The notes beneath the pieces were generated by a model. The model had not been told where the DNA came from. It did not search any database and saw only the letters and a program-made list of their open reading frames with translations. Below are positions 7,507 to 26,075 of a stretch of DNA of 44,080 bases, one piece after another. The DNA comes from Lachnospiraceae bacterium (GTDB lineage Bacteria; Bacillota; Clostridia; Lachnospirales; Lachnospiraceae). The translations under genes were made by a program, and so were the position numbers. The stretch's first letter is position 1. Each line of letters starts with the position of its first letter. The stretch lies in contig JAILAF010000008.1 of the NCBI GenBank assembly GCA_024681775.1, positions 1 to 44,080 of the forward strand. The letters are read 5' to 3'.

Positions 7507-10500
7507 TTAATCCAGATCAAAGAGCTCGATGGTGGTGTAGGTCACAGGCGATACACTCCAGGGCGTATGGTTGGTCACGGTACCTCCCAAAGCGGTCCTG
7601 ATAGTGATCTCATCCTGTACCGCGATGTAGAAGTTCGAATCAAAGTTGGAGACGGTATTGCTCGACTCGTTCTCCACTCTGGAGACGAAATCGCTGAGCT
7701 TGACAATGACACAATAGTCAACGCCGTTCTCCAGACTGGTCTTGGACTGGGCGGCAGCACCGGTACCGTGGGCCTTGTAATCCTCCCAAAGGTAAACGGT
7801 ATAAGCATCAGTACGTTCATCTACCCCTTCCAGTAATACGCCATCCAAATCCACATTTCCAGCACCGGGCTTCTCGCGGAAGAATCGAACGGTTCCCTTC
7901 TTCTCACCCTGCAGGTTCATATCTGTGACTCTGAAACGAATGGTAACATTCTGATCATTCTCACCGGTAAGACCGATCTCCAGGTTCGGATCATAGTAAC
8001 CGTAGATCGCGGAAGTGGATACACCGCTCTCATCCATGATATCGACATTCGGGGTACGCATACCGGTATTGTAGGATGCGATGATGGTGTTCAGGAACAG
8101 TTTCGCCTCATCCACAGATACAGCATTCGTTGTTCCGTTGGAAGCATTGTGTCCCATTCCGGTATACATGACATTCCCCTTGGAATAGAGGTAATAGTCA
8201 TTCTTGGGATCGTTATCTACCAGGTGCCCTCTTTCCACATTGGTGTCGAGATTATACCAGACCACAATGTCGGACTCACCATCTCCATCGGAATCTCCGG
8301 AGAAATCCAACGTAAAGTACTGCGGGTGCGTCAGTCCCAAGGTGATCGTATTCGATCCGTTCAAATTGAACGGGAAGGTCGTGATCTGACCGGCATTGAT
8401 CCTCACACCCTTCTGTGTATCCAGTCTGGCCATACCGCCATCATACCTGGAATTCAGATAATTCTGCCAATTTCCATCCTCGTGCGTGATCAAATGGGCA
8501 TAAGCATAACCCTGCACCTGAGGAACCGTAGTGTTTCTTCCGGATCCGGGCGTATAAGCAATATCGTGCTCATTGTAGAGATAGTATGCACCATCTCTGG
8601 AATTTGCATCCTTGGAAGGCTCCACCAGTTTATAATTTCCATTCTGCAACTCACCGGCAGAATTCCTGGTATAAGAGACACCACGATACAAAGCAGCACT
8701 GTTGGTATTGTACTCACTGTCTGAAATGCCGTAAGTGTCCAGTCCCACATAGGAACGGATGTAGGCATTCATCTGATAACCCCAAATATAGTTATTAATA
8801 TTATTTTTTGCTATATTAGCGGGCATTCCGATATAGGATGTCATATCATGGGCAAAAAGGACACTCTTACCGGACTGGATGAAGGATTTCACAAAACTGG
8901 TCTGCCATGGTTGCAGATCTGCTCCGTCCAGCGCATCGGAGAATCCCAGGATCAACATATCAAAATCGGAAATCTTATAATCATTCTCCTCCCAATTGCT
9001 CATACCTACTGTCGTGATATCCAGAATATAATCATCGGAAATCTGACTTGCAAGCTCTTGGAAATAATTCGTTTTATGCCTGTTATGAGCAGGTCCCGCA
9101 GAGGTGGCATCTACATACCGATCACCGTTCCAGTGACCGATGCTTTCCTCAAGATTGATGACATCATTTCTGCCGGTGGTAAGCATATGAACCTGCAGAA
9201 CCTTGATGGTCCGATCAGCAACAGGAATTTCCTCCATGGGCTCCAGTTTCAAGTACCCAGTCGTGGAATTCCGGACATATTCATTATCCGACTGGCAGAC
9301 CTCCAGTTTCCAGGTAATACAGCCATAGTAGGTGCTGGGTACCTGAACTGTGATCTCATTCTTGTTATCTGCGGACAGTCCGTTATACTGTGCTACCAGC
9401 TCATTCAGATCCGAGAATTTACCATCTGCGTTGGAATCTACAAACACCTTGCAAATATAATCGGATTTCGAAGAAACGGCACCGAGGTTTCGAATGGTGA
9501 AGGAATAAGGAATGTAATACTTCTGATCGCTGCTGGCTCTCAGGATCTTAACTTCCCCATTCGGGTTTCCATTCACAGTATAATACTCTTCACCAAGCAT
9601 CAGACAGTTTTCATACTCGGAATCCAAACTCAGCTTTGCCCTATTGGCATAATACTTAAACAGCGCGGAGCGATCCTGGTAACCCTGCGCACCGTTAAGC
9701 TCACCGCTGGAGAAGACATTCTTGTCGCCCTTCACAAGATCCAGGAACTCGTAAAGGTAGGAGGAACTATCAACTCTGTATGCATTTACGGTATAGCTTC
9801 CGTCGTTCGGATTCACAGTCAAGAGCTGTTGGTCAATGATGATCGGATAAGATGCATACTTAAAGTCAAGTAACTTATTGTACGCCTCTCTGGACAGATC
9901 ATTTCCGGAAAACCGATGAGTTGCATTCCTGTAGGGCCTATTAGAATTTTCCCATTCCGTCGCCAGGAACCCTACCGTCTCTATTCCACCTCGAGTCATG
10001 TCTCCGACATTGAAATACCGCAGACCATTCATGCCGGTATCATTGAATACCGTCTCATTCATCAAGGTGGTACTGTTATATTGGGTGCTCATGTTGGTGG
10101 TGGAAGCATCGAAATAGATCACATCATAAACATTGTTCAGATCATCGATCTTACTGATGAAGAGGTTCATGTTCATACAGGTGATGGTGATATTATCCTG
10201 CTTCACGCCGGTGAGGGCAGAAAAACGAGCCTTGTCCAGACCGCTGCCGGCATTATAAACCTGTGAAGCAGGCTCCACCACAAGGATGTTCAGCGCTTCC
10301 TTCACTTTCGCGATCTCGGTAGCGGACATGATGTGCCGGATGATGGTAGCATCATAGACTTCCGTAGAGAGTCTTTCGTCGCTTTCAAAGGACACATCGG
10401 AATCACGCTGCAGGTTCTCCTGGATGATCAGATTCACCACATCAGCGAGACCGCCGGCGATATGGCCATTGGTATCGTCCGTATCGGAACCGTAGAAGGT

Positions 10501-12231
10501 GCCGACATAGTTCTGTACATCCAGAAGGGGCGCAGTATTCCCATCAAAGAACCATGCACAGCCTCTAACGAACATAAGATCATGCTCCGTATCGATAGAG
10601 AAGGAAGGCAGGATCGCACCGTTCGTCAGGCCATTAAAGGCTCCATCATTCGCAAATCCGGACTGATCCGCATTCAGCAGGCCGATCTTGTTCATCTCTG
10701 CGCTACCCGGAACCGGATTCTCGGAAAGCATCATAAAGTTCAGGGCTCTCGTGAGGTTGGTATCCGTTGCGGTACCTGCAAGAGCAGTTCCCGCAAACCG
10801 ATCGGAAATGTCCACCTGAACAGGGATATTCTCATGATACAGATGCAATGCAAAGGTCCGGGCATTTGCAACGCTCAGGTCGTCAGATGCATTGTAATAG
10901 GCGGTCAGAGGCACGCCGGTGGAATCCCCATTAGCATCCAGGGTCCAACCCATAGTTCCAAAGGTGTCATCCGTCACCGTAACTCTGGCGTTACCGCCTG
11001 CAACCACAGAAACATAATCAAACTCGGAAAGGACTCTGCCGGAGGTAGTATCGGCATTACCGATCATTGCATTCAGCTCAGAAGGCGTCACCACATAGAC
11101 CTCGATACCAAAGATCGGAATCTCAGAGTAGGAATCCAGACCAAAGACTTCCCGCAGGAAGGTGTGGTGGTTCACCAGACCGCCGCAATACCAGAAGGAT
11201 GCGCCGGATACGATGACGGTATCACCGGCCTCTCCGTTTTCCTCATAAGTATCAAAGAACTCATACTCGCCATCGTTACTGGTGTAGACATCATAGAGAT
11301 TGGCCATGTAGACCCAGTCTCCTACCTTCACCTGGTTGTCCTGGTTATTGGTTATATACTGGAACTGCACGGAGTAGTACTCAGAAAGCTCCACGGACCA
11401 ATCGAAACTCGCATCATTACCGGTGACAGAACCGGACATATCATCCCAAACTGCCTTTGCATTCCCGGCATAGATATAGTATCCACTGGTTGCCTTGGTA
11501 TAGATGGGAAGCTCGGGATGATTCGCTGCCAGGTCAGAAAGATCAGCATAGGTCAACTGAGCATCAGAAGCCACATTGTAATAAACCGTTCCTGTTCCGT
11601 TGTTGACATCGATGAGACGGATGCTTCCATCGGAGACAATGTTAAAGGAAACATGCCACTTGTCAGAAGCACTGCCTGTGTGCAGGCGGAATTTACCTCT
11701 CCGCTCGGTCTGCTCGAAAGGTACCTCCGTGTAGAGTCTGTCATCATCAGCCGCAACCTCAGACAGGTCAGAGACCTCATTGTAGGGCTCAAACCGGAAG
11801 GGAAGATCTGCCTGGGACTGATTCGCATAATCCGAAGCGATGGAAGAAAGGATCTGGTCCGCCTCAGAGGAAAGCTCTGCCATAAAGGCTGCGCGATCCT
11901 CCTTGGTAGCAATCCCTGCCAGTTTCTCACTCCAGGGCTGATAGGTATTGGTGGTAGCATCATAGAGTACCGGGAAAGGTTCACAGCCATCAATGGTATA
12001 TCCCATCTCGGCCATGGAATGGTCCGGAACAATCTCCAGGATGCTAAACTTCGCACTGGAATCGGAAAGGATCTCATTCCGGATGCGCTGAATGGAAAGC
12101 AGAGCGTCCTCAGCTGCCTGAGCATCGATGGTATTTCGGTCAACGGCATAATAAATCCCTCCCGCCGTGACAGAGACAACCAAGGCAACCGATAATGTCC
12201 TTTTTAAAAATGTTGACAGTTTCTTACTCAT
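7507..12231 (-). CDS. Secreted DUF5057-domain protein, candidate pilus-tip partner
   Basis: A 1574-residue protein with a signal peptide (basic start MSKKLSTFLKR, hydrophobic core about 12-30, likely cleavage near AQA-AE at 37-39) and no C-terminal membrane helix. Residues about 60-75 read FSILEIVPDHSMAEMGY. Later come YDVIYFDAS and a stretch with FDMLILGFSDA and GKSVLFAHDMTSY. Near the end come DIVVWYNL, KNDYYLYSKGNVMYTGMGH and an EAKLF-N-T-I-I-A-SY segment. Together these are the hallmarks I know for DUF5057 proteins of Clostridia; the biochemical role is unknown. An EF-hand-like loop, D-S-D-G-D-G-E-S-D, lies at 1313-1321. The gene follows the giant minor pilin by 11 bases with GAGGA as ribosome site and ends the pilus operon. 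By position it could be an adhesin or assembly factor carried at the pilus tip, as PilY1 is in Gram-negatives; that is inference. Confidence 0.8.
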   Translation of the reverse strand: MSKKLSTFLKRTLSVALVVSVTAGGIYYAVDRNTIDAQAAEDALLSIQRIRNEILSDSSAKFSILEIVPDHSMAEMGYTIDGCEPFPVLYDATTNTYQPWSEKLAGIATKEDRAAFMAELSSEADQILSSIASDYANQSQADLPFRFEPYNEVSDLSEVAADDDRLYTEVPFEQTERRGKFRLHTGSASDKWHVSFNIVSDGSIRLIDVNNGTGTVYYNVASDAQLTYADLSDLAANHPELPIYTKATSGYYIYAGNAKAVWDDMSGSVTGNDASFDWSVELSEYYSVQFQYITNNQDNQVKVGDWVYMANLYDVYTSNDGEYEFFDTYEENGEAGDTVIVSGASFWYCGGLVNHHTFLREVFGLDSYSEIPIFGIEVYVVTPSELNAMIGNADTTSGRVLSEFDYVSVVAGGNARVTVTDDTFGTMGWTLDANGDSTGVPLTAYYNASDDLSVANARTFALHLYHENIPVQVDISDRFAGTALAGTATDTNLTRALNFMMLSENPVPGSAEMNKIGLLNADQSGFANDGAFNGLTNGAILPSFSIDTEHDLMFVRGCAWFFDGNTAPLLDVQNYVGTFYGSDTDDTNGHIAGGLADVVNLIIQENLQRDSDVSFESDERLSTEVYDATIIRHIMSATEIAKVKEALNILVVEPASQVYNAGSGLDKARFSALTGVKQDNITITCMNMNLFISKIDDLNNVYDVIYFDASTTNMSTQYNSTTLMNETVFNDTGMNGLRYFNVGDMTRGGIETVGFLATEWENSNRPYRNATHRFSGNDLSREAYNKLLDFKYASYPIIIDQQLLTVNPNDGSYTVNAYRVDSSSYLYEFLDLVKGDKNVFSSGELNGAQGYQDRSALFKYYANRAKLSLDSEYENCLMLGEEYYTVNGNPNGEVKILRASSDQKYYIPYSFTIRNLGAVSSKSDYICKVFVDSNADGKFSDLNELVAQYNGLSADNKNEITVQVPSTYYGCITWKLEVCQSDNEYVRNSTTGYLKLEPMEEIPVADRTIKVLQVHMLTTGRNDVINLEESIGHWNGDRYVDATSAGPAHNRHKTNYFQELASQISDDYILDITTVGMSNWEENDYKISDFDMLILGFSDALDGADLQPWQTSFVKSFIQSGKSVLFAHDMTSYIGMPANIAKNNINNYIWGYQMNAYIRSYVGLDTYGISDSEYNTNSAALYRGVSYTRNSAGELQNGNYKLVEPSKDANSRDGAYYLYNEHDIAYTPGSGRNTTVPQVQGYAYAHLITHEDGNWQNYLNSRYDGGMARLDTQKGVRINAGQITTFPFNLNGSNTITLGLTHPQYFTLDFSGDSDGDGESDIVVWYNLDTNVERGHLVDNDPKNDYYLYSKGNVMYTGMGHNASNGTTNAVSVDEAKLFLNTIIASYNTGMRTPNVDIMDESGVSTSAIYGYYDPNLEIGLTGENDQNVTIRFRVTDMNLQGEKKGTVRFFREKPGAGNVDLDGVLLEGVDERTDAYTVYLWEDYKAHGTGAAAQSKTSLENGVDYCVIVKLSDFVSRVENESSNTVSNFDSNFYIAVQDEITIRTALGGTVTNHTPWSVSPVTYTTIELFDLD

Positions 12232-12242
12232 ATCTTCCTCAC

Positions 12243-15200
12243 TTAATTATAAGCTGTAAAGCGATCCGGATACTTATAATAGTATGCCTTATTATACTTT
12301 TTCGCATTGTCATCCCATCTTAAGAAAGTAAAATCACCATCTCGATCATACCAAGACTGAAGGAATCCATCCTTATTATTTCCGGTTTGATAAGTCAAAT
12401 AATAATATGAGAAAGAACCGAAATAATAGTCATAAGTTACTTTTCTTAAGTAATAACACTCCGTTGCAGAAATCTCATACCTCCAGTAGGTTATACCATA
12501 CTCTTGCCCCTTAATCCAGCGAGAATCTCCGGGAGCAGGCGCATACAGGCTGGAGGGTTCGGGCTTAACCGTTATCACGGAGCGCCTACTAAGCTCATCA
12601 TAGACGATATTATCGGGATAATACACAGAACCGGTGCCTTCAAAGAATCGGTACTCTGTCCCATACTCTCCATCAGAATACTCAAGGTATCCGGTATAAG
12701 GCGTCTGCCAATTGCCTACAATGGTTCTATATCTCCACTGATTTACCCAAACGCCATTATCCTTGAACAAATAGGTGAGATAATATTTCCCTTCTTTTAA
12801 GATCAATTCATATCTCTCATTGGAAGAAGGCTCGTAGTAGCTTACACCGCTCTGAGAAGAATCGGTCTTCCATTCACCGGAACCAGGAAGAGGCGCACAA
12901 AGCACCGTAGGTGTCTTATTATCTCCCGTTAAGTTGCTGTTATCCTTGATCAGTTTATCCGGGAACACATTATTTCCGACAATATTAAATTGGATGGAGC
13001 CAACACATCCTTTCATTACGGACCAGGCAGCAGCCTGGGAATGGCCCATGTATGGATTCTCTTCATACTTAAGGGTAACAGTCTGACCGGAATTGTTGTC
13101 CGCAAACGCTTTATCGATAGTGAAATCAAGATAACCAATCCTGGAGTCGCTATTGGAAACCCCCTGAGTAACACTAAAGAAGTTTGCAATCCTTCCAAAA
13201 TTCTTAGAAAAATCGTATTCTGATAATGCTACAGTACGACCATAATCCGAGATCTTGTAGTAATCATTGTGAGAACTGTGCTCATAAAACCCGCCATTCA
13301 AATGAATAGGATTTTCTGTATCCAGATGCCAGTCTCCGGAATATCTTTCTCTTCTATACCATTTTTCGTTCGTATAACCTTCATCCTTGAAGAAATAAGA
13401 CGAACTGATCTTTGTATTTGGATTAAAAATCGTAGCATTGAAACGATTAATCAAACCATCAACATAAGCGCTTTCATCATCCTCTAGTGTAAAGATTGCT
13501 TGATTTTTTTTACCTCCGGCATAACCCTGCCCAAGATAAATAACGTAATCAGAATCTCTGTCATACCCTAATTCAGAGGTATTATAATCATCGTCTCCAA
13601 AACGATTAGGCCAGTTACCGGTCTGGTTGAAGAATTGAGGCGTGCCTAATACACCGCCCCAACCACTGGTCAGGCGGAAGTATACGCGAGACTTGATATC
13701 TCCGGTTCCTCTGAGCAGACTCACATCGAGGTCGGAGCTCCAGGTTGCGCCATCTGCAGAATACTCGATCTGAACAGGATCTACCGGAACAAAGTAGGTC
13801 TTATCAAAGGCAACTTCACCGCCATTGTTGGCAGTGATCTTAATCTGAACCTCCAGGCAATCGTTATCATTCACATTACCATAACGATCTACCAGGATGC
13901 CGGAGTAAGGGAATACCACAGAATTGTCCAGATAAAGCTGCACATCATAATATTCGTTCTCAAAGACAACCTGGTTATCCACCACCTGGGTCAGCAGATA
14001 GACATCCCCGGCATTGTTATTGTACTTATTGTAAGTCCTACCACCAATCGTAATTCTTTCCGCCCCGGCCTGATTATAGGCACCGTTGTTGCTGATGGTG
14101 TTGTTAAACACTCTCGGGCAATCCGGATCGGATCTTTGCATGGCAGTTACAATGCCTTCCTCATCCACCTCGGTAGCATGACCGCTGTAGAGTTCAAAGG
14201 AAAGGACAGGGTTCGCCCCTCCGTATTTCTTTGCCATGGACTTCATGATACTGTTCAGCGCATCCATATCCAGGGGAAGCAGTCCATCTCTCTGCAGATG
14301 TGCCTTGGGATCGATGAGATCCTTATTGGCAGACTGCACCATGATGGTCTTGGTCATGCCTTCCGCACTGGTATTGGGCCGGATGGTACGATAACGGATC
14401 ACCACCCTGGTGTCATCGTAGTAGGAAGTATCCTCATATGCCAGATCCTTCAGGTCAAAGCTGATACTACCGGTCGCAGGATCGATGGAGAGCTTCTCCA
14501 CCACATTGCCGGAGCCGGAAGTCACCTTTGCATTCTGCAGAACGCCGTTCGCATCGTGGTAATACTCCGTCACGGAAATCTCGGAGAATCCGCCCACGTT
14601 GTTGATAATGGTGGATGCATCACTGTAATCTGCCTTGATCTGCTCATCGATATGGAACTGACCTTCCGCAGGATTGGGCGCTACGGTAAAGGCATGGGCC
14701 TGATCAGGGCCGGCACTCAGACGGGTAACGATACCGGTGGTCTTCTCCTTGATCTCCACCGTATCATCCGTATAGGTCGTGCCGTCATAAGAAACCGTTC
14801 CAGCCATGGCATTGATCTTGCGGACCCAGACATGGAGGCACTTCTCGGGGGTCATACCATCAGCTTCATCCTTACCGTTGATGTAAAGGCTGCTGACAGG
14901 ATCCTCGGGATCATCGATATAAGCATAGACATAGAAGTCTGCTGCAGTCTCCTCTTTGGAAACGGTAACGATTACCTTACCATCCTTCTTCTCTACGGTA
15001 CTGCCGCCGGCAGTAACGGAAGTGGAGCCCGCTGCTGCAGGATATATGCCCCAGTTTACATTTTTGAACATAAGCAGGCCGCCGGTACTGCTGACGGTAG
15101 CGGTGATGGTCTTACCGTCTTCAGAGCCGTAGGACTCTTCGTTCCAAAGCATGATCTCCTTAGGAGACACAACAATATCTCCCACCTTCACTTCATCATC

Positions 15201-15845
15201 AATGGGATCATCATAGATGTCGGAAGTGATATTGATGGGAACCTCGTTACGCACTTTGATCTTGTGGGTGGTGGTATAGGATCTGTCACCCTTCTCAAAG
15301 GTGATGGTATAAGCAACCGTGCGGTCGCCGCCGGGCTTGATCTCGGACAGATCCACCGCAAAGGACTTCACATATTCTGCCAGGAGGTTACCAACGGAGA
15401 CAGGCGTCTCGTCCTTGGTGGCTTCGTAGGTGGAATAGGTGATCTTTCCGGTGTCCTTATCCCAGTTGATCACGATATAGCCGGACTTGTTGTAGATGTA
15501 GAGAGACTTGGTATACTTCACATACTCAAGCAGGTCGTCCTCATCCACGCCGATCTCATCATCCGTGATGATATATCCGTCCAGGACTTCTTCACCGTCC
15601 GCAGCCTGGGCATTGTACCGATAGGAAATACCCCGGTTCACGTCGATGATCAGGTCCTGCATCTCGTTGGAAAGAAGCTGTGCCTCATACTGCAGGTCGG
15701 TCTCGGTAGAGCCGTTATTGTAGCTCCTCTGTGCAGTCATGATGAAGGCGCCGATGGCCGTGGTTGCGATTCCGAGAATGGCAACGGCGACTATGATCTC
15801 AACGAGGGAAAACCCCTTGTTTTTCAATCTTCTCAACCCTTTCAT
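12243..15845 (-). CDS. Giant minor pilin, PilW/GspJ-like (about 1200 residues)
   Basis: A type IV prepilin start followed by a very large ectodomain. The start is MKGLRRLKNKG at 15845, fixed by AAGGAG 8 bases upstream; an ATG at 15863 overlaps the preceding gene. Cleavage is expected after Gly11, giving FSLVE with Glu5 present and a hydrophobic helix to about residue 38. Residues about 40-200 resemble PilW/GspJ minor pilins (LQYEAQLLSNEMQDLI). Beyond lies an Ig-like beta region (about 225-340), and long beta-rich, Tyr/Asn-rich segments follow. Two modules at the C-terminus each begin with L-x-A-P-x-P-G-x-x-x-W (residues 982 and 1100). Typical minor pilins of this class have about 200-350 residues, so this one is several-fold larger. 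The 3' part (about 12243-13700) is clearly richer in A+T. Probably part of the pilus tip complex with the three preceding minor pilins. Confidence 0.85.
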   Translation of the reverse strand: MKGLRRLKNKGFSLVEIIVAVAILGIATTAIGAFIMTAQRSYNNGSTETDLQYEAQLLSNEMQDLIIDVNRGISYRYNAQAADGEEVLDGYIITDDEIGVDEDDLLEYVKYTKSLYIYNKSGYIVINWDKDTGKITYSTYEATKDETPVSVGNLLAEYVKSFAVDLSEIKPGGDRTVAYTITFEKGDRSYTTTHKIKVRNEVPINITSDIYDDPIDDEVKVGDIVVSPKEIMLWNEESYGSEDGKTITATVSSTGGLLMFKNVNWGIYPAAAGSTSVTAGGSTVEKKDGKVIVTVSKEETAADFYVYAYIDDPEDPVSSLYINGKDEADGMTPEKCLHVWVRKINAMAGTVSYDGTTYTDDTVEIKEKTTGIVTRLSAGPDQAHAFTVAPNPAEGQFHIDEQIKADYSDASTIINNVGGFSEISVTEYYHDANGVLQNAKVTSGSGNVVEKLSIDPATGSISFDLKDLAYEDTSYYDDTRVVIRYRTIRPNTSAEGMTKTIMVQSANKDLIDPKAHLQRDGLLPLDMDALNSIMKSMAKKYGGANPVLSFELYSGHATEVDEEGIVTAMQRSDPDCPRVFNNTISNNGAYNQAGAERITIGGRTYNKYNNNAGDVYLLTQVVDNQVVFENEYYDVQLYLDNSVVFPYSGILVDRYGNVNDNDCLEVQIKITANNGGEVAFDKTYFVPVDPVQIEYSADGATWSSDLDVSLLRGTGDIKSRVYFRLTSGWGGVLGTPQFFNQTGNWPNRFGDDDYNTSELGYDRDSDYVIYLGQGYAGGKKNQAIFTLEDDESAYVDGLINRFNATIFNPNTKISSSYFFKDEGYTNEKWYRRERYSGDWHLDTENPIHLNGGFYEHSSHNDYYKISDYGRTVALSEYDFSKNFGRIANFFSVTQGVSNSDSRIGYLDFTIDKAFADNNSGQTVTLKYEENPYMGHSQAAAWSVMKGCVGSIQFNIVGNNVFPDKLIKDNSNLTGDNKTPTVLCAPLPGSGEWKTDSSQSGVSYYEPSSNERYELILKEGKYYLTYLFKDNGVWVNQWRYRTIVGNWQTPYTGYLEYSDGEYGTEYRFFEGTGSVYYPDNIVYDELSRRSVITVKPEPSSLYAPAPGDSRWIKGQEYGITYWRYEISATECYYLRKVTYDYYFGSFSYYYLTYQTGNNKDGFLQSWYDRDGDFTFLRWDDNAKKYNKAYYYKYPDRFTAYN
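12253..12902 (-). repeat. Two diverged tandem modules at the C-terminus of the giant minor pilin
   Basis: Two protein-level modules of about 100-118 residues lie head to tail, starting at residues 982 (base 12902) and 1100 (base 12548). Both open with an A-P-x-P-G-x-x-x-W motif, continue with a Y-x-E-x-S segment and have a YYLTY strand. They are too diverged to show as a DNA repeat. Confidence 0.55.
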
Positions 15846-15850
15846 TTGCG

Positions 15851-16429
15851 TTACTCCTTCCAAGCGTAAGTTACTTTACCGGTAAGTTGCACCAGATCCA
15901 GCTGCATGGTCCAGTTTCCTTTGGTGATATAGATCGTTGACACGCTGTTTCCCAGGTCCGTTGCGCCGACAAAAGCATTCTTAAAGCTGCCGGCAGACCG
16001 GTCAAAGGAAAAGATCAGGCTCTCATCCATAGATCCGGGAAGGGATCCGTAGGATACCACGTTCAAAACATGCTCAGCAACGGACTCGTCCTCTCCCAAA
16101 AGCTTATAGGAGACAGTCAGATTCTTCTCTCCGATCTGCTCCGGAGCGGATATCGTCACATCACTGCCCTTGGTGGTCTCCAGAGAAGCACAGACACCCA
16201 GATCCGTATTGGTCAGGATCAGTCTGGCATCCTTGAAGCTCATGGCATTGGTCCTGGCCTTTTCCAGGTAATAGACCACCTGCTTGGTACATCCTGTCAC
16301 ATGCCTTCTGGGTACCACCCCCAGGAGGGTGATGGAACCGATTCCGACGATGGCCAGGATAGCGATCACCGTAATGAGTTCGATCAAAGAATATCCATGA
16401 TTATTCGGTTTGCGAAGATTCCTGTTCAT
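15851..16429 (-). CDS. Minor prepilin, GspH/FimT-like
   Basis: A 192-residue prepilin. The leader MNRNLRKPNNHG is expected to be cut after Gly12, leaving YSLIE with Glu5 and the helix LITVIAILAIVGIGSITLL. The next segment (TGCTKQVVYYLEKARTNAM) resembles the start of GspH/FimT minor pilins, whose helix is followed by residues of the type L...L..AR..A. The C-terminal part is a small beta domain with a short basic/aromatic tail (TYAWKE). Its size is normal for the family, unlike its neighbours. The stop lies 5 bases before the giant pilin start, so the two are probably translated together. Minor pilins of this kind join the complex that primes pilus assembly at the tip. Confidence 0.85.
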   Translation of the reverse strand: MNRNLRKPNNHGYSLIELITVIAILAIVGIGSITLLGVVPRRHVTGCTKQVVYYLEKARTNAMSFKDARLILTNTDLGVCASLETTKGSDVTISAPEQIGEKNLTVSYKLLGEDESVAEHVLNVVSYGSLPGSMDESLIFSFDRSAGSFKNAFVGATDLGNSVSTIYITKGNWTMQLDLVQLTGKVTYAWKE

Positions 16430-16458
16430 TGATGCTTGGTCACTCCTTATGGATTCGC

Positions 16459-18912
16459 TTATCTCTTGGTCCAGTTGACGTAGGTAATGATGCCGTCCAG
16501 ACTGATGTAATCATCGGTGGAGGAGGATACGATCCCTGCGAAGGAATTGCTGTATGCCTCTCCGTTGATGAAGAAGTCCTCAACCAGCGCTCTCTCGGAG
16601 AAGGATGCATCATCCGGCTTGCACTGCAGCAGGTACTTTACCATCTCCTCATCACTGCAGACCAGTCTGCCGGTGGATTCCTTCACGGTGATACGGCCGC
16701 CTGCCAGCACCAGTCCGCAGAAGTTCCGGTCGATCTCTGCATTTCCGGTGCAGATGATCAGCTCATAATCATCCGTGAATTCGGAGAGCTTCACATCGCC
16801 GTTCACAACAGCTGCTCTGGCCTTCGGTGCCTCGGTATTGGGATAGGAGTAGATGACTCTCTGCCCGCTGGTCAGTCTTGTCTTGACCAGATCGTAGAAG
16901 GAACTGGTAGGGTCATCAATACCGATGAGGTTCTCGTATACGCTTCTGCTCTGCTCGGTAACGGACAGGGCACTGAATCTGGTGGTGAGCTTGGAGCACA
17001 GTCCCTTATAAGCATCCAGGTACTCGGACTGCTTGTCATAGTAGTCGTTTAACTGGGTCTCGGACAGGGAGCTGACGGTCTCATCAAAGATGCTGACCTT
17101 CGTATCATCCAGCGCATAAGTCAGGATGCCGCCGGTGCTGCGGATGAAGTCCTTATCATCCGTATCGCCCAGGGTGATGGTGTTCCCGTACTTTTTCAGA
17201 TACGAGAGCATATTGGCGGAATTGGTCATGTAGTCCTTGTAGTACTGCTCTGCGGCAGCCTCGCCCAGATCGCTGAAATCCAGGTAGACATAGACCACAT
17301 TCTCCGTACCGATCTGGCGGAAAATGGTCTTAAAGTCGGAAGAACCGAGGCCGTAATCAGCCAGCTTCTTACCGCCTAAGGTAGCGATGGGTCTGGATAC
17401 ATCGATGCGATAGTATCCGGAATCGTTATGTCCGCTATACCAGTCCTTATAGTCGGTCAGGAGCATGGGGTTGCGTCCGCCGATGAGGTTTCCGTTCAGG
17501 ATACCCATGACCTCAGCGGGAACCAGGAAACACATCTGGTCCGTCTTGGAAGCGACGGAGGATCCCAGGACGATGTTATTGGGGTCCGCCACAAAGGTCT
17601 GTGCATCCAGGTCGGCAGATGCCAGAGAGACAGCGGAGGAGATATAGGCATTACCGGAAAGCATGAGATCCTTCAGCCCGGAGAGATTCACTCTGGAATC
17701 AGCGGCATTTAACAGGATCGCGCTCTGGCCCTTGCCATATCCGTAATAGGAGCCGGAAAGGATCAGGCTGTCTGCATACTTGGACAGGGTGGTATCATCC
17801 TTCACATAGAGGATGGTATCCTCTGCGGTCTGCAGGGAAGTGTAGGAAGAGGTTCCCTTGGCGGATCCGTTGAGACTGATATCCGTGGTCCAAAGCTGCA
17901 TATCATTCAGAGGAGCGCCTGCACTGTTGGCTGCAGTCTTCTGCGCCTCCGTGGGAGAGTTCAGATTCAGAGAGCACAAGGAATCCAGTCTGGTCTGACC
18001 CGCACTGATCAGATAGACGGGATTACAGTAGGTCAGGCTCTTGCCGCCATAGACATAGTCGCCGGTCTCCACAGTCAGCTTCGACTGTCCCGTAAGGACG
18101 ATGCCGGACTTGATCTCATCCGCCTTCGGATTATCGGGGTCAGCGAAATCGGTGGACAGATTCTTCTTACCTGCATAGATATTGCCCATCAGCTTTGCAC
18201 CGGTGGTCTTATCAAAGGTGACACCGGCATCGCCGATCATGCAATAGGTAAACACATTGGGAAGCACCGAGGACTCCGAGAAGGAAATGCTGGGGAATCC
18301 GATGCGGATATCCGTGATGATCTCGGAATAGTAGCCGTCCGCATCCGTATAACCGATGCACAGATCCTTCATGATCAGGCCGTTCTCGGTGATCACGATG
18401 GAGTTCTGATCATCGGGGGTCTGGCACTCCAGGGTCAGGTCGCCTGCATCATAGGCTGCAGTATATTCCTTGGACAGATATTTCAGGACGCCCTTGGTAT
18501 AGACACCGTCTGCATTCAGCACGTCGGAATCATCCTTCACCAGATATCTGCCGGCATGGGCAGGATCCTGGAGCTCGTTGGTCAGGGAAGTCAGATACTC
18601 GTTGCGGAAATTATTCCAGCGGACAGTGTTGGAGATCTGCTTATACTGCTGCATTGCATCGATATAAGCGCTGTCAATGGACTCGGAAGCAAGCTCCTCC
18701 AATCCTACATGGATCTGATCCATTGCGATCTCGGCACTGTAGAAATTCGCCTTACTTCTCTTCTCTGTCGCTTTCATCTGGAAGTTCACCAGAGAGATGG
18801 ACATCAGGACAGATACCAGGATCATCACCAGTGCGATGGCAACCAGCACCATGACGATTCCGGCTCCGCGATTGTCCTTATGGAATTTGCGATTTGCATT
18901 CAAATTGATCAT
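16459..18912 (-). CDS. Large minor pilin without Glu5, PilX/GspK-like
   Basis: About 817 residues. The start is MINLNANRKF at 18912, chosen because AGAAAAGG lies 7 bases upstream; ATG at 18918 is too close to that site. A basic leader ends in NRG at Gly16 and is followed by AGIVMVLVAIALV and a long hydrophobic helix. Position 5 after the predicted cut is Met, not Glu. Absence of Glu5 is known in GspK and some PilX-type minor pilins, which cap the tip complex. QMKATEKRSKANFYSAEIAMDQI follows the helix as in PilX-like proteins (segment about 48-70). The middle (about 220-500) has many short beta runs with repeated G-N and S-G turns and may form a beta-helix; that is a guess. The C-terminal part has two Cys near SCDEE/CKPDD-like positions. 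It sits between the PilV-like and GspH-like genes in one operon. Confidence 0.8.
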   Translation of the reverse strand: MINLNANRKFHKDNRGAGIVMVLVAIALVMILVSVLMSISLVNFQMKATEKRSKANFYSAEIAMDQIHVGLEELASESIDSAYIDAMQQYKQISNTVRWNNFRNEYLTSLTNELQDPAHAGRYLVKDDSDVLNADGVYTKGVLKYLSKEYTAAYDAGDLTLECQTPDDQNSIVITENGLIMKDLCIGYTDADGYYSEIITDIRIGFPSISFSESSVLPNVFTYCMIGDAGVTFDKTTGAKLMGNIYAGKKNLSTDFADPDNPKADEIKSGIVLTGQSKLTVETGDYVYGGKSLTYCNPVYLISAGQTRLDSLCSLNLNSPTEAQKTAANSAGAPLNDMQLWTTDISLNGSAKGTSSYTSLQTAEDTILYVKDDTTLSKYADSLILSGSYYGYGKGQSAILLNAADSRVNLSGLKDLMLSGNAYISSAVSLASADLDAQTFVADPNNIVLGSSVASKTDQMCFLVPAEVMGILNGNLIGGRNPMLLTDYKDWYSGHNDSGYYRIDVSRPIATLGGKKLADYGLGSSDFKTIFRQIGTENVVYVYLDFSDLGEAAAEQYYKDYMTNSANMLSYLKKYGNTITLGDTDDKDFIRSTGGILTYALDDTKVSIFDETVSSLSETQLNDYYDKQSEYLDAYKGLCSKLTTRFSALSVTEQSRSVYENLIGIDDPTSSFYDLVKTRLTSGQRVIYSYPNTEAPKARAAVVNGDVKLSEFTDDYELIICTGNAEIDRNFCGLVLAGGRITVKESTGRLVCSDEEMVKYLLQCKPDDASFSERALVEDFFINGEAYSNSFAGIVSSSTDDYISLDGIITYVNWTKR

Positions 18913-18928
18913 ATCCATGCCTTTTCTG

Positions 18929-20488
18929 TCAGTTTCTGATGGTACTGCTGAGGCTGGCCTTGGCTTCCCCGGCATCCTTCATATCCTTAAAATCATCGTA
19001 ACTCTTGAACGTATCATCCTCATGGAGGAAAACATCGATCTGAATGTCATAGATGCGCTCCAGTGCGGCCTTGTTGGTAAGCGACGTCGTATGAAGCATC
19101 CCCTCCACATCCGTCTTGGGTACACCATTGTAGAGGAATCCCAGGGAGATGCCGTTGGAGGTCATCTGACAATGGCTCATCTTCGGGAACTCTCCCACCG
19201 CATTTCTGGTCATGTAATAACCGATGTTGGTGTGCAGATAGATGGAAGGCTCGTCAAAGACGGAAGGAGATACAGGAGCTGCACCTTTCAGGGTCTCCCG
19301 CTCTTCGAGTTCAAAAACAGGGTGATACATATCATCCCAGGCAAGACCGATGGACTCATAATCATGCGGAAGGAGCTTTACGATGTAGACATCCAGATCC
19401 TGTCGCTTGTCTGCGGGATACACCGCACGGACGATCTTGATCTTATCCTCTTTGTAATCCTTACGAGGATCATAGAAGAGGTAAACATTCCGGAGGCTGA
19501 CATCCAGATCTACAGAATTATCGAAGGGATAATCCTTATGGAGGTTCAACTTCACCTGCTGTCCTGCCTTGTCACCCACAGCGTAGGTATAGGTGTAATT
19601 GTATGCCACCATCACCTTCTGCTCAAAGAAACTCATCAGGTTCTGAGACTCTTCGATCTGGATCAGGATCTCTCTGGAGATATTGGAAACAGAGAAGCTG
19701 GGGTCATTTGCGATGGACTGGAGCTGTGCCTCCGCCTCCGCGTCAAAGACGGTACTGTTGGAGGAGATCACATCGTACTGCGCATCCATGTTGGGGAGCT
19801 GCACCACTTCGTTGTTGTTGTAGCCCTGACCGCTGGCGATCACATTGCCGTTATCGGTATCTTCCTTGTAAGGAAGGCCATCCAGAGTGATCACCGCATC
19901 ATAGACTCTCTTCTCCATCACCAGGTTCTGCAGGTAGAGGTAATACTTACCATCCTTGGTAGTGACATACTTGCCCTGGTAGATGTAGGAATCAGTGTCG
20001 GCATCATAGACGGGATGCAGATTTGCCTCATCGATATAGGAGGTCAGATCATTCCCATCCTCGTCCTTGCTCTTGGCCGCATAGGTGCCGATGAAATCCT
20101 TCACATGAGAGGGATCATCAAAAGCAGCACCGTTGATGAGATCCGGCAGGAGTTCAAAATTCCGATAGGAATAATCACTGCCGCCCACGTTAAATGACAC
20201 ATAGGGATGCTCAAACTGCATCATGAGCTTGTCCATATCCTGGCTCTTGAAGGCCTCCATGATATCCTGCGCAAGAGAGGTGGCCTGATGCTGCACCTTT
20301 GCCTTGGAGTTTACCTTGGCGGAAACGATAAAGCCTTCATAGAAAACCACGACCACAATGCTTAAGATGGCGATGGCAATCAGAACCTCGATGAGGGACA
20401 GGCCCTTGTTATTCAATTCTTCCGGTCTGTTTTTTCTAACCACGATTTTCTTCCCACTTACGGATTTAATAAAATCACAAAAAGACAT
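18929..20488 (-). CDS. Large minor prepilin, PilV/GspI-like
   Basis: A 519-residue prepilin. A fairly long leader of 29 residues ends in ELNNKG and precedes LSLIE (Glu5 present) and the helix VLIAIAILSIVVVVFYEGF. Residues such as ATSLAQDIMEAFKS after the helix match PilV/GspI minor pilins (A...A..I.E). The ATG at 20488 has GGGGGGAT 8 bases upstream; a GTG 15 codons later would give a leader of more usual length and cannot be excluded. The ectodomain of about 450 residues is two to three times the usual size; it contains many aromatic and charged residues and no motif I recognise. It starts the minor-pilin series, about 45 bases after pilO, and its stop is 16 bases before the next start. Confidence 0.85.
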   Translation of the reverse strand: MSFCDFIKSVSGKKIVVRKNRPEELNNKGLSLIEVLIAIAILSIVVVVFYEGFIVSAKVNSKAKVQHQATSLAQDIMEAFKSQDMDKLMMQFEHPYVSFNVGGSDYSYRNFELLPDLINGAAFDDPSHVKDFIGTYAAKSKDEDGNDLTSYIDEANLHPVYDADTDSYIYQGKYVTTKDGKYYLYLQNLVMEKRVYDAVITLDGLPYKEDTDNGNVIASGQGYNNNEVVQLPNMDAQYDVISSNSTVFDAEAEAQLQSIANDPSFSVSNISREILIQIEESQNLMSFFEQKVMVAYNYTYTYAVGDKAGQQVKLNLHKDYPFDNSVDLDVSLRNVYLFYDPRKDYKEDKIKIVRAVYPADKRQDLDVYIVKLLPHDYESIGLAWDDMYHPVFELEERETLKGAAPVSPSVFDEPSIYLHTNIGYYMTRNAVGEFPKMSHCQMTSNGISLGFLYNGVPKTDVEGMLHTTSLTNKAALERIYDIQIDVFLHEDDTFKSYDDFKDMKDAGEAKASLSSTIRN

Positions 20489-20533
20489 TCGGCGTATCCC
20501 CCCGTATGTCTTTTTGCTGATACCGGTGTAAAC

Positions 20534-21292
20534 TTACTGCGCTGCAGACTCTTCGGCAACCTCTTCGGTCTCGGTCAGGACTGCATTACGATCATACTCG
20601 TCCAGCGTTCCGAAAGGATTCTCGGTACCCTTTTCCACAGGAGTCAGGCTGGGCTGAGAGTACGGCTTGTCGGAGCCGAAGACATAGTAGGTGTCCATGG
20701 TGACGCTGCCATTCAGTAGACCATTGGCATTATCGTATCCAAGCGTCACTGCGGTGATACCGCGCTTATCCTTCAGTGCATAGATCTTTGCCACCATATC
20801 CTTTAATCCGGTATAGGTGGAGCTAAGGTTGTAATTCACGACATTGTCAAACAGCGTGTAGTGCGGATAAGCGGAAGTGATATCCATCACAACACCGCTC
20901 TCTTCTGCCACAGCATCGGCTGCGGAATAGTCCGTGGTGAAGACTGCTGCGGGAGCTGCGAAAGTCATGCCGTTAATGTAACGGAAATCAGAACCGAAAT
21001 CGTTATCCAGTTCGTATGCCAGCTTCACATCATCCTCAACCAGTGCATTGGAAGGAAACTCATTGATGCGCTCCGCGATCTGCTGCTGCATCTGCTCGGT
21101 CTCTGCCACATATACCTCACGGTTTGCTTCCCACTCCTGATACTTGGCGATCTCCTCTTCCATGGAAGCGGATTCGGCATTCAGGGAAGCAGTCTGCTGC
21201 TCCATCTTCTGATACAGGAAATAATAGCTCAGGATCGCAGCTGCGATTCCCAGTACGGCGATCAGTAATCCAATCTGATTCTTCTTACTCAT
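20534..21292 (-). CDS. pilO: PilO-like pilus assembly protein
   Basis: A 252-residue bitopic membrane protein. A short cytoplasmic start (MSKKNQ) is followed by one membrane helix (about 7-27), then a coiled coil rich in Glu and Gln (about 28-80), then an outward alpha/beta domain. This is the PilO layout. In the T4P system PilO pairs with PilN as part of the inner-membrane alignment complex, linking PilM in the cytoplasm to the pilin platform. A tail after about residue 210 is acidic and low in complexity. The gene begins 12 bases after the pilMN stop with AGAGGGGG as ribosome site, in the standard order M-N-O. Sequence conservation in this family is low, so context carries much of the weight. 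Confidence 0.82.
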   Translation of the reverse strand: MSKKNQIGLLIAVLGIAAAILSYYFLYQKMEQQTASLNAESASMEEEIAKYQEWEANREVYVAETEQMQQQIAERINEFPSNALVEDDVKLAYELDNDFGSDFRYINGMTFAAPAAVFTTDYSAADAVAEESGVVMDITSAYPHYTLFDNVVNYNLSSTYTGLKDMVAKIYALKDKRGITAVTLGYDNANGLLNGSVTMDTYYVFGSDKPYSQPSLTPVEKGTENPFGTLDEYDRNAVLTETEEVAEESAAQ

Positions 21293-21304
21293 TTCAGCCC
21301 CCTC

Positions 21305-22939
21305 TTACTGTAAAGCAGATTCATAAATGCAGGTGATGGTAAAGATCACGGAAGGAACGCCTTCTGCATCAGTCGTATCGGTAGCTCCGGCGATTTGCAC
21401 ATCACCAATCGAATCAAAGTTTCTCAGCTCCTGGATGGCATTGGCCATCTCTTCCTTGGAACTGACCTTCATGGTCATAGTCACGGAATCCAGCACAGCG
21501 GAGAAGGTCTGAACAGATACGTCAGCAGGGAGCTTTTTCTCCATCTCTGCCAGGAAGTCCAGCAGCTCTTCATTGTGGTTGGAGGTCAAGCCGTACATGG
21601 TCTCCACCTGATCATGCACCACCTTGATGCTCTCGTGGGTCGCATAGATGGTACGGATCTCGGAGAGCTCGTTGAGCTTCTGCACATCGTTATTGTGTCT
21701 GGTCTTGGCCTCCTGCTGGTGCATGAAGGCGATGCCGAAGAGGCCACCTGCAATAGCACATCCGAGGATACCTACCAGGATGCCAACTGCCAAATAACTC
21801 TTAGAGCCGGAAGCACTCTTTGCAGAAGAAGTAGCAACTTCACTGCTACTAGCAGTCATAAACCCTACAGGATTTACTGCAGCGCCCACGCAGGCGATGT
21901 ACTCACCGAATCTGCCGTCCTTGAAGGCCTTCTCGATGGTGTGGCCCTCCAGGTGTTTCAGACCCACGGTCTTGATGCCCAGCTCGTTGGTGAAGAGCTT
22001 GGACAGGCCGGAAAAGTCAGCGCCGAGGCCGGTGATGTAGATGTTATCAACGGTTCTGCCGCCGTTCCGGGATCCATAATAATCCTGAATGCGGGCAACA
22101 CCATTTAAAAGCATGTTCAGAGATGCGGAGACCTCTTTCTTGGCAGAGAGGAGTCTTGCATCATCGGAAGCATCCTCTTCCTCTGCCTCACGAAGCTCCT
22201 TGGCATTGATGGAGACCTTCATGCAGGTCTTCCGGGCAGCCAGATCCAGCGCATCGTCGTAGGAAGAAGCCTCGAAAGCAGGGTTATTCACGATGGTATT
22301 GATGGCATCATTGATACCGTAAGCGATATTTCTCTGGAGAGAGATGGTGGAATTCTCCACGATGGTGATGATGGAACTGTCCTCGTCCACCTTGATCACC
22401 ATCTTCACGCCGTCCTTACAGTCGTTCTTCACCATCTCATAGATGGAATTACCGCTGTAGTCGGCTGCCACCATCTGGAGCCCCAGAGCATCTGCCAGCT
22501 TCTTATAGCTGTCCAGAATGAGGCGGGGCACTGCCAGGAGCAGGACCTTTCTCTCATTGTTTGCCTGGTTCTCGGATAACTGGATGAAGCCAAGCTCGTG
22601 CTGAGACAGATCAATAGGGAAATAATCCTTGATATTGGCGCGGATCAGAGCGTCGATCTGCTTCTCCCTGACATAGGGGATGGTGACCTCTCTGGTAGCT
22701 ACCTTGGAGGAAGTGATCGGGAAGACCACCTGCTTTGCGGTAAGCTTGTTTGCCTTGATCGTTTCCTTGATCAGATTGACGAATTCGGGAGTGGCCTGCA
22801 CTTCACCATCCATCAGGATGTTGTCAGGCGTCTCAACCTTGGCATACCCATACACCCTGGGAGACTTGACCTTATAGTCCGTCTGGCAGATCCTGGTGTA
22901 ATTGGCGCCGATTTCAATACTCAGAACTTTGCTAGCCAT
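21305..22939 (-). CDS. pilMN: PilM-PilN fusion protein of the type IV pilus
   Basis: A 544-residue fusion. Residues 1 to about 350 form an actin-like PilM domain: the first strand VLSIEIGANYTRI, a nucleotide-site strand near KMVIKVDEDSSIITI, and NIYITGLGADFSGL near 300. After a Ser-rich linker comes one membrane helix (about 383-407). A PilN-type outward domain follows, with LDFLAEMEKKLPADVSV, then a strand VTMTMKVSSKEEMANAI and a final strand. Normally PilM and PilN are separate and the PilN N-terminal peptide docks into PilM; here PilM is tethered directly to the membrane. A pilMN fusion is known from Clostridioides difficile, so this is a clostridial trait. The PilN docking motif (NLLP-type) is not visible in the linker, as expected if docking is replaced by fusion. 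AAAGGG precedes the ATG by 6 bases. Confidence 0.9.
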   Translation of the reverse strand: MASKVLSIEIGANYTRICQTDYKVKSPRVYGYAKVETPDNILMDGEVQATPEFVNLIKETIKANKLTAKQVVFPITSSKVATREVTIPYVREKQIDALIRANIKDYFPIDLSQHELGFIQLSENQANNERKVLLLAVPRLILDSYKKLADALGLQMVAADYSGNSIYEMVKNDCKDGVKMVIKVDEDSSIITIVENSTISLQRNIAYGINDAINTIVNNPAFEASSYDDALDLAARKTCMKVSINAKELREAEEEDASDDARLLSAKKEVSASLNMLLNGVARIQDYYGSRNGGRTVDNIYITGLGADFSGLSKLFTNELGIKTVGLKHLEGHTIEKAFKDGRFGEYIACVGAAVNPVGFMTASSSEVATSSAKSASGSKSYLAVGILVGILGCAIAGGLFGIAFMHQQEAKTRHNNDVQKLNELSEIRTIYATHESIKVVHDQVETMYGLTSNHNEELLDFLAEMEKKLPADVSVQTFSAVLDSVTMTMKVSSKEEMANAIQELRNFDSIGDVQIAGATDTTDAEGVPSVIFTITCIYESALQ

Positions 22940-22995
22940 GTTAACCCTTTCCCCGGCTTTCCTTCCGGTCTCCTACATAAGAACTCTATCTGTAA

Positions 22996-23032
22996 CCGTA
23001 CCTCTCACGATGGATTGATTATGAGTGTACGG
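22996..23032 (-). other. Hairpin in the pilD-pilMN gap
   Basis: In the 108-base gap, CCGTAC and GTACGG form an outer stem, and CTCA with TGAG an inner one, around a loop of about 14 bases. No T run follows, so it is not a terminator. It may be an RNA processing or stability element between the abundant pilin part and the assembly-protein part of the operon. Confidence 0.35.
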
Positions 23033-23047
23033 GAACATTCCTATTTA

Positions 23048-23815: not shown

Positions 23816-23825
23816 GATGATTTAC

Positions 23826-24233: not shown

Positions 24234-24271
24234 AATAATCTCTCCTTTTAAATGTTTGTTTTTATCTTACA

Positions 24272-24755: not shown

Positions 24756-24778
24756 CTCTCTCCTCCTCGCCATCTCCA

Positions 24779-26071: not shown

Positions 26072-26075
26072 CCTA

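What the first reader, a model, noticed from the sequence alone, without database searches (positions are those of the whole stretch)
7507..12231. DUF5057 protein as a possible PilY1-like tip partner of a clostridial type IV pilus
The sequence shows a 1574-residue secreted protein encoded 11 bases after the last minor pilin, in the place where many Gram-negative loci carry pilY1 beside pilX/pilW. It has an EF-hand-like loop D-S-D-G-D-G-E-S-D at residues 1313-1321; PilY1 is known to use such calcium loops to control pilus dynamics. DUF5057 has no assigned role that I know of. A tip adhesin or calcium-sensitive assembly factor for Gram-positive pili would be new. The link is inferred from position and one motif.
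Basis: partly seen in the sequence, partly recalled or inferred. Interest (0 to 1): 0.7.

Follow-up and report, generated by a model that had tools for sequence, protein, structure and literature searches.

The report
Likely pilus tip protein family, DUF5057
A large secreted protein of unknown function in gut-type Gram-positive bacteria turns out to travel with type IV pilus genes and probably sits at the pilus tip, doing the job that the unrelated protein PilY1 does in Gram-negative bacteria.

Summary
In detail: a 1574-aa exported DUF5057 protein on the minus strand, 11 nt after the last minor pilin, with a PilY1-type calcium motif (Dx[DN]xDGxxD) at 1313-1321. The link is not confined to this locus. 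Of 135 distinct DUF5057 genes, 118 have readable upstream DNA; 112 of these lie directly or one gene downstream of a minor pilin, and 116 of 118 lie in a type IV pilus locus, including three from another Bacillota family with a different gene order. The proteins have an export signal, no sortase motif and no C-terminal membrane segment; most end in an xFDLD-like tail; a few carry adhesive or lectin-like modules. The cap-type minor pilin (no Glu5) is at least 697 aa in 50 of 50 DUF5057 loci measured, and shorter in 8 of 11 pilus loci without the family. It is not a PilY1 homologue by sequence: no PF05567 match in 62 members; instead three related regions, probably alpha/beta. Pilus component: about 0.93. 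Tip or priming role, a PilY1 counterpart in monoderms: about 0.6, inferred.

The parts
7507..12231 (-). DUF5057 gene, 1574 aa, exported non-pilin, candidate pilus tip/priming protein
   Evidence: PF16480 E 1.9e-36; context
12109..12231 (-). N-terminal export signal (residues 1-41, hydrophobic stretch then AQA/AE); cleavage not shown, could be an uncleaved anchor
   Evidence: family: 118 of 122 proteins with an N-terminal hydrophobic stretch
10432..12069 (-). region R1 (residues 55-600), holds one copy of the repeated fold plus variable insertions
   Evidence: hhalign R1-R2 93.5 % over 105 columns, R1-R3 78.9 % over 101 columns
9517..10314 (-). repeat R2 (residues 640-905)
   Evidence: hhalign R2-R3 91.9 % over 67 columns
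9403..9438 (-). EF-hand-type loop, residues 932-943 (DSNADGKFSDLN)
   Evidence: weak GEVED match 928-969, E 0.01
8032..9234 (-). repeat R3 (residues 1000-1400), best conserved part; invariant H1128 D1129 N1279 H1302 Q1304 W1325 H1361 E1375
   Evidence: 18 members; 31 members; weak ThuA matches
8269..8295 (-). PilY1-type calcium loop DSDGDGESD (residues 1313-1321), an optional insertion in R3
7510..7524 (-). C-terminal tail LFDLD (residues 1570-1574), of a type common at the extreme C-terminus of the family
12232..12242 (-). 11-nt gap between the last minor pilin and the DUF5057 gene, with ribosome-binding site
12243..15863 (-). minor pilin mW (PilW-like place), 1206 aa, Glu5 present
   Evidence: N_methyl E 1.4e-6
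15851..16429 (-). minor pilin mH (PilH/FimU-like place), 192 aa
   Evidence: N_methyl E 7e-6
16459..18975 (-). mX, 838 aa, pilin-like N-terminus without Glu5 (PilX/GspK-type cap; label by N-terminus and place)
   Evidence: no Pfam or NCBIfam match
18929..20488 (-). minor pilin mV (PilV-like), 519 aa
   Evidence: N_methyl E 4.8e-7; TIGR02523 below its cut-off
20534..21292 (-). PilO-like protein (label from place and size, recalled)
   Evidence: no NCBIfam match
21305..22939 (-). PilM-type protein, 544 aa (a PilM-PilN fusion is my guess)
   Evidence: TIGR01175 E 3.6e-25, below its cut-off of 133 bits
23048..23815 (-). prepilin peptidase PilD (label recalled from sequence features)
23826..24233 (-). 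major-pilin-like PilA1
   Evidence: prepilin motif by eye
24303..24779 (-). major-pilin-like PilA2
   Evidence: prepilin motif by eye
24779..25993 (-). platform protein PilC (label recalled)
26149..27837 (-). extension ATPase PilB (label recalled)
   Evidence: matches pilT_fam below cut-off, while the pilT of this genome is on contig C26

Best explanation
DUF5057 is a dedicated non-pilin component of the type IVa pilus of Lachnospiraceae and some other Bacillota, and most likely the protein that caps the minor-pilin tip complex: a monoderm counterpart of PilY1 of separate origin. Proposed working: (1) it is exported by Sec and stays at the outer face of the membrane (inferred); (2) it docks on the minor pilins mV/mH/mW/mX, chiefly on the large Glu5-less cap pilin mX, perhaps through its C-terminal xFDLD tail (inferred); (3) this complex primes pilus assembly and is pushed out as the tip (inferred from PilY1 in Myxococcus); (4) the repeated domains and, in a few species, grafted modules contact the target (inferred); (5) calcium bound by EF-hand-type loops stiffens or tunes the head in members that have them (inferred). 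Shown here: gene linkage, export signal without wall or C-terminal membrane anchor, the repeats, the tail, the motif statistics, and the co-occurrence with a long cap pilin.
For: Linkage: 135 distinct DUF5057 genes (72 fetched after genome search plus 80 from the search for related loci, minus 3 weak genes L104-L106 and 14 duplicates); 118 with readable upstream DNA; 108 lie right after a pilin, 4 one gene further, 3 (family f29) between minor pilins and pilB, 1 next to pilC: 116 of 118. Gap to the pilin: median 18.5 nt, 55 of 58 at most 100 nt. Co-occurrence in 299 same-family genomes: 54 of 75 genomes with a long PilM in the listing have DUF5057, against 9 of the 224 others. A second pilus locus of the same genome ends in its own DUF5057. 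Build: 118 of 122 with N-terminal hydrophobic stretch, 0 of 118 LPXTG-like, 0 of 118 C-terminal membrane segment. Strict tail pattern in 30 of 65 DUF5057 proteins but 3 of 928 other ORFs, and those 3 sit in the same slot of pilus loci without a Pfam DUF5057 match. mX lacks Glu5 in 97 of 97 loci; mV keeps it in 78 of 89, mH 95 of 97, mW 97 of 97. mX is 697 aa or more in 50 of 50 DUF5057 loci (median 817), against 189-885 aa (8 of 11 below 697) in pilus loci without the family. Modules: pAdhesive_15 and Big_2, Flg_new, CBM26-like and RicinB-like stretches below cut-off. Literature frame: PilY1 and minor pilins prime and tip the pilus (PMC7541494, abstract); a Glu5-less subunit caps the tip complex and PilC/PilY1 sits on it in diderms (PMC10191384, passages).
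Against: Pilus loci without it exist in the same family, one in the window's own genus (G116, L110): 21 genomes with a long PilM have no DUF5057 match; in 21 loci from 20 of them only 5 hold a divergent relative. So it is not needed by every such pilus. Two of 118 readable genes show no pilus gene next to them (L057; L167, which has only 1.4 kb before its contig end), and L104, dropped before the count, is a weak member outside a pilus locus. The mirror-tree signal DUF5057-mX (partial r 0.57, 51 loci) falls to 0.26-0.33 when mX is cut to 250 aa, and PilM shows 0.51 with the same piece, so it shows no contact. mX was recognised by likeness to the window's own long mX, which may favour long ones in the DUF5057 set, and the length test is not corrected for descent. 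The tail is missing in the three f29 proteins and the named calcium loop in about half of the family. The N-terminal helix may be uncleaved. Module hits are few. No structure or complex was modelled.
Confidence: 0.6

Rival explanations
1. Membrane-held assembly factor: DUF5057 stays anchored by an uncleaved N-terminal helix, helps the minor pilins start a pilus, and never leaves with the tip.
For: N-terminal hydrophobic stretch in 118 of 122; an [AV]xA cleavage-like motif follows in only 94 of these 118; same operon as the minor pilins.
Against: Adhesive and lectin-like modules on some members make more sense on an exposed tip (inference); length varies widely, 652-2417 aa in the set, as in surface adhesins (inference).
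Confidence: 0.2
2. Secreted substrate of a pilus-like secretion system: the locus works as a type II-like exporter and DUF5057 is its cargo, released outside.
For: mX lacks Glu5, as GspK does (recalled); weak similarity of R3 to ThuA, a sugar-utilisation family (2 of 31 segments, best E 0.0029); invariant His/Asp/Gln/Glu set in R3.
Against: A monoderm cell has no outer membrane that such an exporter would serve (inference); the locus has two major-pilin-like genes and a PilM/PilO set, and the genome has pilT, i.e. a T4aP-type set.
Confidence: 0.1
3. Remote PilY1 homologue whose beta-propeller has diverged beyond detection.
For: Same gene place and same motif Dx[DN]xDGxxD.
Against: No PF05567 match in 62 members, none in 66 genomes (but its controls were silent too), no PDB match of the family profile; internal architecture is three related regions.
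Confidence: 0.04
4. Unrelated surface protein or enzyme that merely sits in the operon.
For: Weak ThuA similarity; no experiment ties it to the pilus.
Against: 116 of 118 readable genes are in pilus loci, across many genera and in a second family with a different gene order; a long mX goes with it.
Confidence: 0.05

Closest known systems
PilY1/PilC (PF05567), non-pilin tip protein of diderm T4aP
   Same: Exported large non-pilin encoded with the minor pilins; EF-hand-type motif Dx[DN]xDGxxD; conserved core with modules that differ between members
   Different: No PF05567 match; three related regions, probably alpha/beta; xFDLD-type tail; monoderm hosts; the calcium motif in 68 of 135 members; no vWA or DUF4114 match in the 62 members scanned
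Modular minor pilins PilB/PilC of Streptococcus sanguinis (PMC6916266, PMC10191384)
   Same: Adhesion modules carried by a tip-complex component of a monoderm T4P
   Different: Those are pilins with a grafted C-terminal domain; DUF5057 has no prepilin motif and is a separate protein
GspK/PilK/PilX-type cap pilin
   Same: The neighbour mX lacks Glu5 as these do (for GspK recalled)
   Different: That is the neighbour, not DUF5057; mX is large (median 817 aa in 50 loci)
ThuA / class I glutamine-amidotransferase-like domains
   Same: R3 weakly matches ThuA (2 of 31 segments, best E 0.0029)
   Different: Weak matches only; fold not modelled

Membership tests
PilY1/PilC (PF05567) | C-terminal beta-propeller domain PF05567 | tested here: not met
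   No match among 18+24+20 family members; family profile matches no PDB chain at E<=1. Sequence tests only
PilY1/PilC (PF05567) | Gene beside the minor pilins | tested here: met
   116 of 118 readable genes in a T4P locus
PilY1/PilC (PF05567) | EF-hand-like calcium motif Dx[DN]xDGxxD | tested here: met
   Window 1313-1321; 68 of 135 family members, 3 of 169 other large ORFs
PilY1/PilC (PF05567) | Complex with minor pilins, tip location, need for pilus extension | not testable with these tools
   Mirror-tree attempt inconclusive; structure tool off
DUF5057 (PF16480) | Match above Pfam gathering score | tested here: met
   126.7 bits against 27.9
Type IVa pilus locus | PilM/PilN/PilO, PilB, PilC, PilD and pilins together | tested here: met
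   ORFs 12243-27837; PilM by TIGR01175 (below cut-off), three pilins by PF07963/TIGR02532; PilB, PilC, PilD, PilO labels rest on recall
Type IV pilin | Prepilin N-terminal cleavage/methylation motif in DUF5057 | tested here: not met
   No N_methyl or TIGR02532 match in P0001
Sortase-anchored adhesin | LPXTG-type C-terminus | tested here: not met
   0 of 118 complete proteins
ThuA / GATase-like | Significant family match | tested here: inconclusive
   1 of 18 full proteins at E 0.042, 2 of 31 R3 segments, best 0.0029; no PDB match of substance for R3 or R2

The most novel reading that the evidence does not exclude
Monoderm type IV pili have evolved, independently of PilY1, their own separate tip-protein family: a head built from three GATase-like repeats whose last repeat keeps an invariant His-Asp-Asn-His-Gln-His-Glu set (a sugar-reading or even catalytic site), mounted on an oversized Glu5-less cap pilin through a C-terminal xFDLD plug, with calcium loops and lectin-like modules as optional fittings.
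Probability: 0.25. Interest if true: 0.82.

Novelty: new variant of a known kind. Interest (0 to 1): 0.62.

Why it matters
A 2019 review of monoderm T4P counts ten biogenesis proteins in S. sanguinis and says that late-stage components of the diderm system are missing (PMC6916266, section 6); a 2023 review places the non-pilin tip protein PilC/PilY1 in diderms (PMC10191384, passages). A Bacillota family that fills the same gene slot would mean that a separate tip protein was invented twice, would give a role to a domain of unknown function for which the held library has no paper, and would let one ask what a tip protein must do (cap the Glu5-less pilin, prime assembly, hold the ligand) by comparing two unrelated solutions. 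It also bears on how gut and rumen bacteria attach to fibre and mucus.

Tried and rejected
Plus-strand reading of 7507-12231: several stops inside, rejected. Direct PilY1 homology: not supported. The PF05567 genome search rang in 0 of 66 genomes but also in none of the 14 controls, so it does not show absence. Mirror-tree: 26 loci gave DUF5057-mX partial r 0.52 (p 0.001) and DUF5057-mV 0.27 (p 0.009); 51 loci gave 0.57 for mX with the other partners near 0; length-cut controls removed the specificity, so it is not used as evidence of contact. Fold recognition by sequence profile of the whole family, R3 and R2 against the PDB: nothing of substance. PHROGs: nothing for DUF5057. Competence link: at least one of yifB, dprA, topA, codY lies within seven genes downstream in 13 of 55 and 22 of 72 readable loci; I read this as an old Bacillota neighbourhood (recalled), not as evidence of DNA uptake. 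Rfam: nothing in the window at gathering scores. In one search one of seven intended negative controls (L104) matched R3 at 96 %; it is the weak PF16480 relative, so R3 also occurs outside pilus loci; the other six gave 4 % or less.

Full report
What is there. The stretch 7507-12231 codes on the minus strand for a 1574-aa protein. It is the last gene of a run on that strand: PilB 27837-26149, PilC, two major-pilin-like genes, PilD, a PilM-type protein, a PilO-like protein, then mV (519 aa), mX (838), mH (192), mW (1206) and DUF5057. mV, mH and mW match PF07963/TIGR02532 and PilM matches TIGR01175 below its cut-off; mX matches nothing in Pfam or NCBIfam and is called pilin-like from its N-terminus. 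PilB, PilC, PilD and PilO are labels from recall. The start codon lies 11 nt after the stop of mW, behind a GAGGAAG site. Pfam gives PF16480 at 777-1129, E 1.9e-36. DSDGDGESD is at 1313-1321 as stated.

Is the position meaningful? The family was sought without regard to context. PF16480 rings in 63 of 299 genomes of the window's family and in 5 of 299 of a phylum-wide draw: the own genome, one of the same family, and three of one other family (f29). I fetched 72 genes with flanks and 80 more, with names, by the search for related loci (the best 80 of 293 relatives; mostly records labelled Lachnospiraceae, others labelled Oscillospiraceae, Butyricicoccus, Oscillibacter, Faecalibacterium, Clostridia and the like). 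Three weak genes were dropped before the count (L104, just over the cut-off with its neighbours; L105 and L106 below it; L104 and L106 are not in pilus loci, L105 is cut by its contig), and 14 duplicates. Of 135 distinct genes, 17 have upstream DNA cut by a contig end. Of the 118 others, 108 follow a pilin directly, 4 with one gene or gene fragment between, 1 follows pilC (L062, a 652-aa version), 3 (f29) lie divergently beside pilB with the minor pilins at their other end, and 2 show no pilus gene next to them: L057, which lies between yifB- and dprA-like genes, and L167, which has only 1.4 kb before its contig end. Genes were called by a crude longest-ORF rule and pilins by a regular expression, so single rows may be wrong. 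In 299 same-family genomes, 54 of 75 with a long PilM have DUF5057 and 9 of the 224 others do; the PilM listing was cut at about E 3e-13, my length rule is hand-set, and G060, G068 and G213 of the nine have partial PilM rows.

The window's genome has a second pilus locus, on contig C105, running from PilC to mW and a DUF5057 gene that the contig end cuts at 1022 aa; no pilB was seen in the stretch fetched.

What kind of protein? 118 of 122 distinct proteins have an N-terminal hydrophobic stretch, 94 of these with [AV]xA after it; 0 of 118 complete ones have an LPXTG-like motif or a C-terminal membrane segment. So the protein is probably exported and needs another way to stay on the cell. Profile comparison shows three related regions: R1-R2 93.5 %, R2-R3 91.9 %, R1-R3 78.9 % probability, over 67 to 105 columns; pairs with the other two blocks gave 36 % or less, except R3-C (89.8 %), which share 16 residues by my choice of limits. 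The strand pattern and the weak ThuA matches suggest a Rossmann- or glutamine-amidotransferase-like alpha/beta repeat; this is inference, as structure prediction was off. R3 is the most conserved part and holds residues invariant in 18 diverse members including two from f29: H1128, D1129, N1279, H1302, Q1304, W1325, H1361, E1375; the same are invariant in 31 R3 segments. Pfam's DUF5057 match ends at 1129, inside R3.

The C-terminal tail. Most members end in an x[LIM]F[DNE]L[DEN]-like tail at the very C-terminus: 119 of 147 by a loose pattern (this count still includes L104-L106 and repeated proteins); by a strict pattern 30 of 65 in the genome search set, against 3 of 928 other ORFs over 150 aa in L038-L129. 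Those three (L118, L120, L125) are large exported-looking proteins in the same slot of pilus loci where Pfam found no DUF5057, and all three share R1 with the family (95-97 %). So the slot is filled by divergent relatives more often than Pfam shows: L113, L118, L120, L125 and L128, 5 of the 21 loci that I read from 20 of the 21 PilM genomes without a DUF5057 match (G266 not fetched). L111 shares only a similar tail, L119 is unrelated, and 14 show no such protein beside the pilins, L112 and L126 being cut by a contig end. The f29 proteins lack the tail and have C-terminal extensions instead.

Calcium. The loop at 1313-1321 matches the PilY1 consensus Dx[DN]xDGxxD (PMC8833165, passages; PMC13190605, passages). 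It is an optional insertion: 46 of 91 members readable by regex have it, most others a short turn; at least three of the 91 read a wrong place. A loop of the type DxNxDG, as at 932, is in 110 of 136, at least two off-place. Both motif types are enriched over other large ORFs of the loci: 68 of 135 against 3 of 169, and 78 of 135 (strict 12-residue EF) against 5 of 169; the window's own 932 loop misses the strict form by one place. Calcium binding is plausible for many members but not a family-wide switch.

The neighbours. mX has no Glu5 in 97 of 97 loci, while mV (78 of 89), mH (95 of 97) and mW (97 of 97) keep it (by rule). In reviewed systems a Glu5-less minor pilin caps the tip complex, and in diderms PilC/PilY1 sits on that complex (PMC10191384, passages). 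In 50 of 50 DUF5057 loci of the genome search set mX has at least 697 aa (median 817); in six loci with slot proteins (L111 counted) 728-999; in 11 loci without a family member 189-885, 8 of them below 697 (one-sided p 3.6e-5, not corrected for descent). L114, L126, L129 and L215 were left out for want of a clear mX, though L114 has a 300-aa candidate. mX was recognised by likeness to the window's own long mX, except L117 and L127, set by place. The f29 caps are 599-632 aa, shorter than in the Lachnospiraceae loci. In 10 loci without the family mW tends to be larger (p 0.018), as if an enlarged modular pilin replaced the separate tip protein; the window itself has both. Distance-matrix partial correlation singled out mX (0.57) but did not survive truncation controls.

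Binding modules. Three of the 62 members scanned match an ice-binding-like adhesive domain (pAdhesive_15) and three match Big_2; the tables do not name the members, and I ascribe them to the three f29 proteins from their C-terminal extensions. L203 has six List_Bact_rpt stretches; L072 has a CBM26-like and L085 a ricin-lectin-like stretch, both below Pfam's cut-off; L128 matched nothing. A fixed core with changing adhesive fittings is what a tip adhesin would show, but most members carry no recognised module.

Comparison. PilY1 and four minor pilins form a priming complex, tip and cork in Myxococcus (PMC7541494, abstract). DUF5057 resembles PilY1 in place, export, calcium motif and modular build; by sequence it is not a PilY1 (membership test). 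No paper in the held library contains 'DUF5057', and in the listings I saw no separate non-pilin tip protein for monoderm T4P. Passages of a Ruminococcus T4P paper (PMC3672088), a Paenibacillus one (PMC9765702), a Gram-positive T4P survey (PMC3244431) and a 2026 review (PMC13234629) name none either; I did not read these in full, and preprints and most subscription journals are not held.

Verdict. That DUF5057 is a type IV pilus component: about 0.93. That it is the tip/priming protein: about 0.6.

Noticed in passing
7507-27837, and G000 contig C105 (L091, L214): The genome has two T4P loci, each ending in its own DUF5057 gene; the C105 copy is cut by the contig end.
   Followed up: partly
L218 (G000:C26:43000-58000): The pilT of this genome is not in the window's pilus locus but lies beside dprA- and yifB/comM-like genes on another contig (the last two labels recalled).
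   Followed up: partly
L041, L057, L078, L080, L111: In part of the family the pilus locus is followed by topA, codY and flagellar basal-body genes, in some also yifB/comM and dprA; at least one of yifB, dprA, topA, codY within seven genes in 13 of 55 and 22 of 72 readable loci.
   Followed up: partly
16459-18975 and mX homologues: The cap pilin mX also has a conserved C-terminal end around N-W-K (NW in 27 of the 30 tails shown of 72), in a protein with no Pfam match.
   Followed up: no
L215 7940-18433 (G179:C25) and L114 9222-16649: Giant pilin-like ORFs of 3497 and 2475 aa with prepilin motifs in pilus loci without DUF5057.
   Followed up: no
L104 9678-13307: A 1209-aa exported-looking protein outside a pilus locus shares the R3 domain (96 %), so R3 is of wider use.
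   Followed up: no
8032-9234: Pfam's DUF5057 match (to residue 1129) ends inside the best conserved domain; the model could be redrawn.
   Followed up: no
321-2819 and 27938-30472: Two large membrane proteins lie near the ends of the locus; the second is YfhO (PF09586, E 1.7e-126), the first looks alike by eye; no link to the pilus seen.
   Followed up: no
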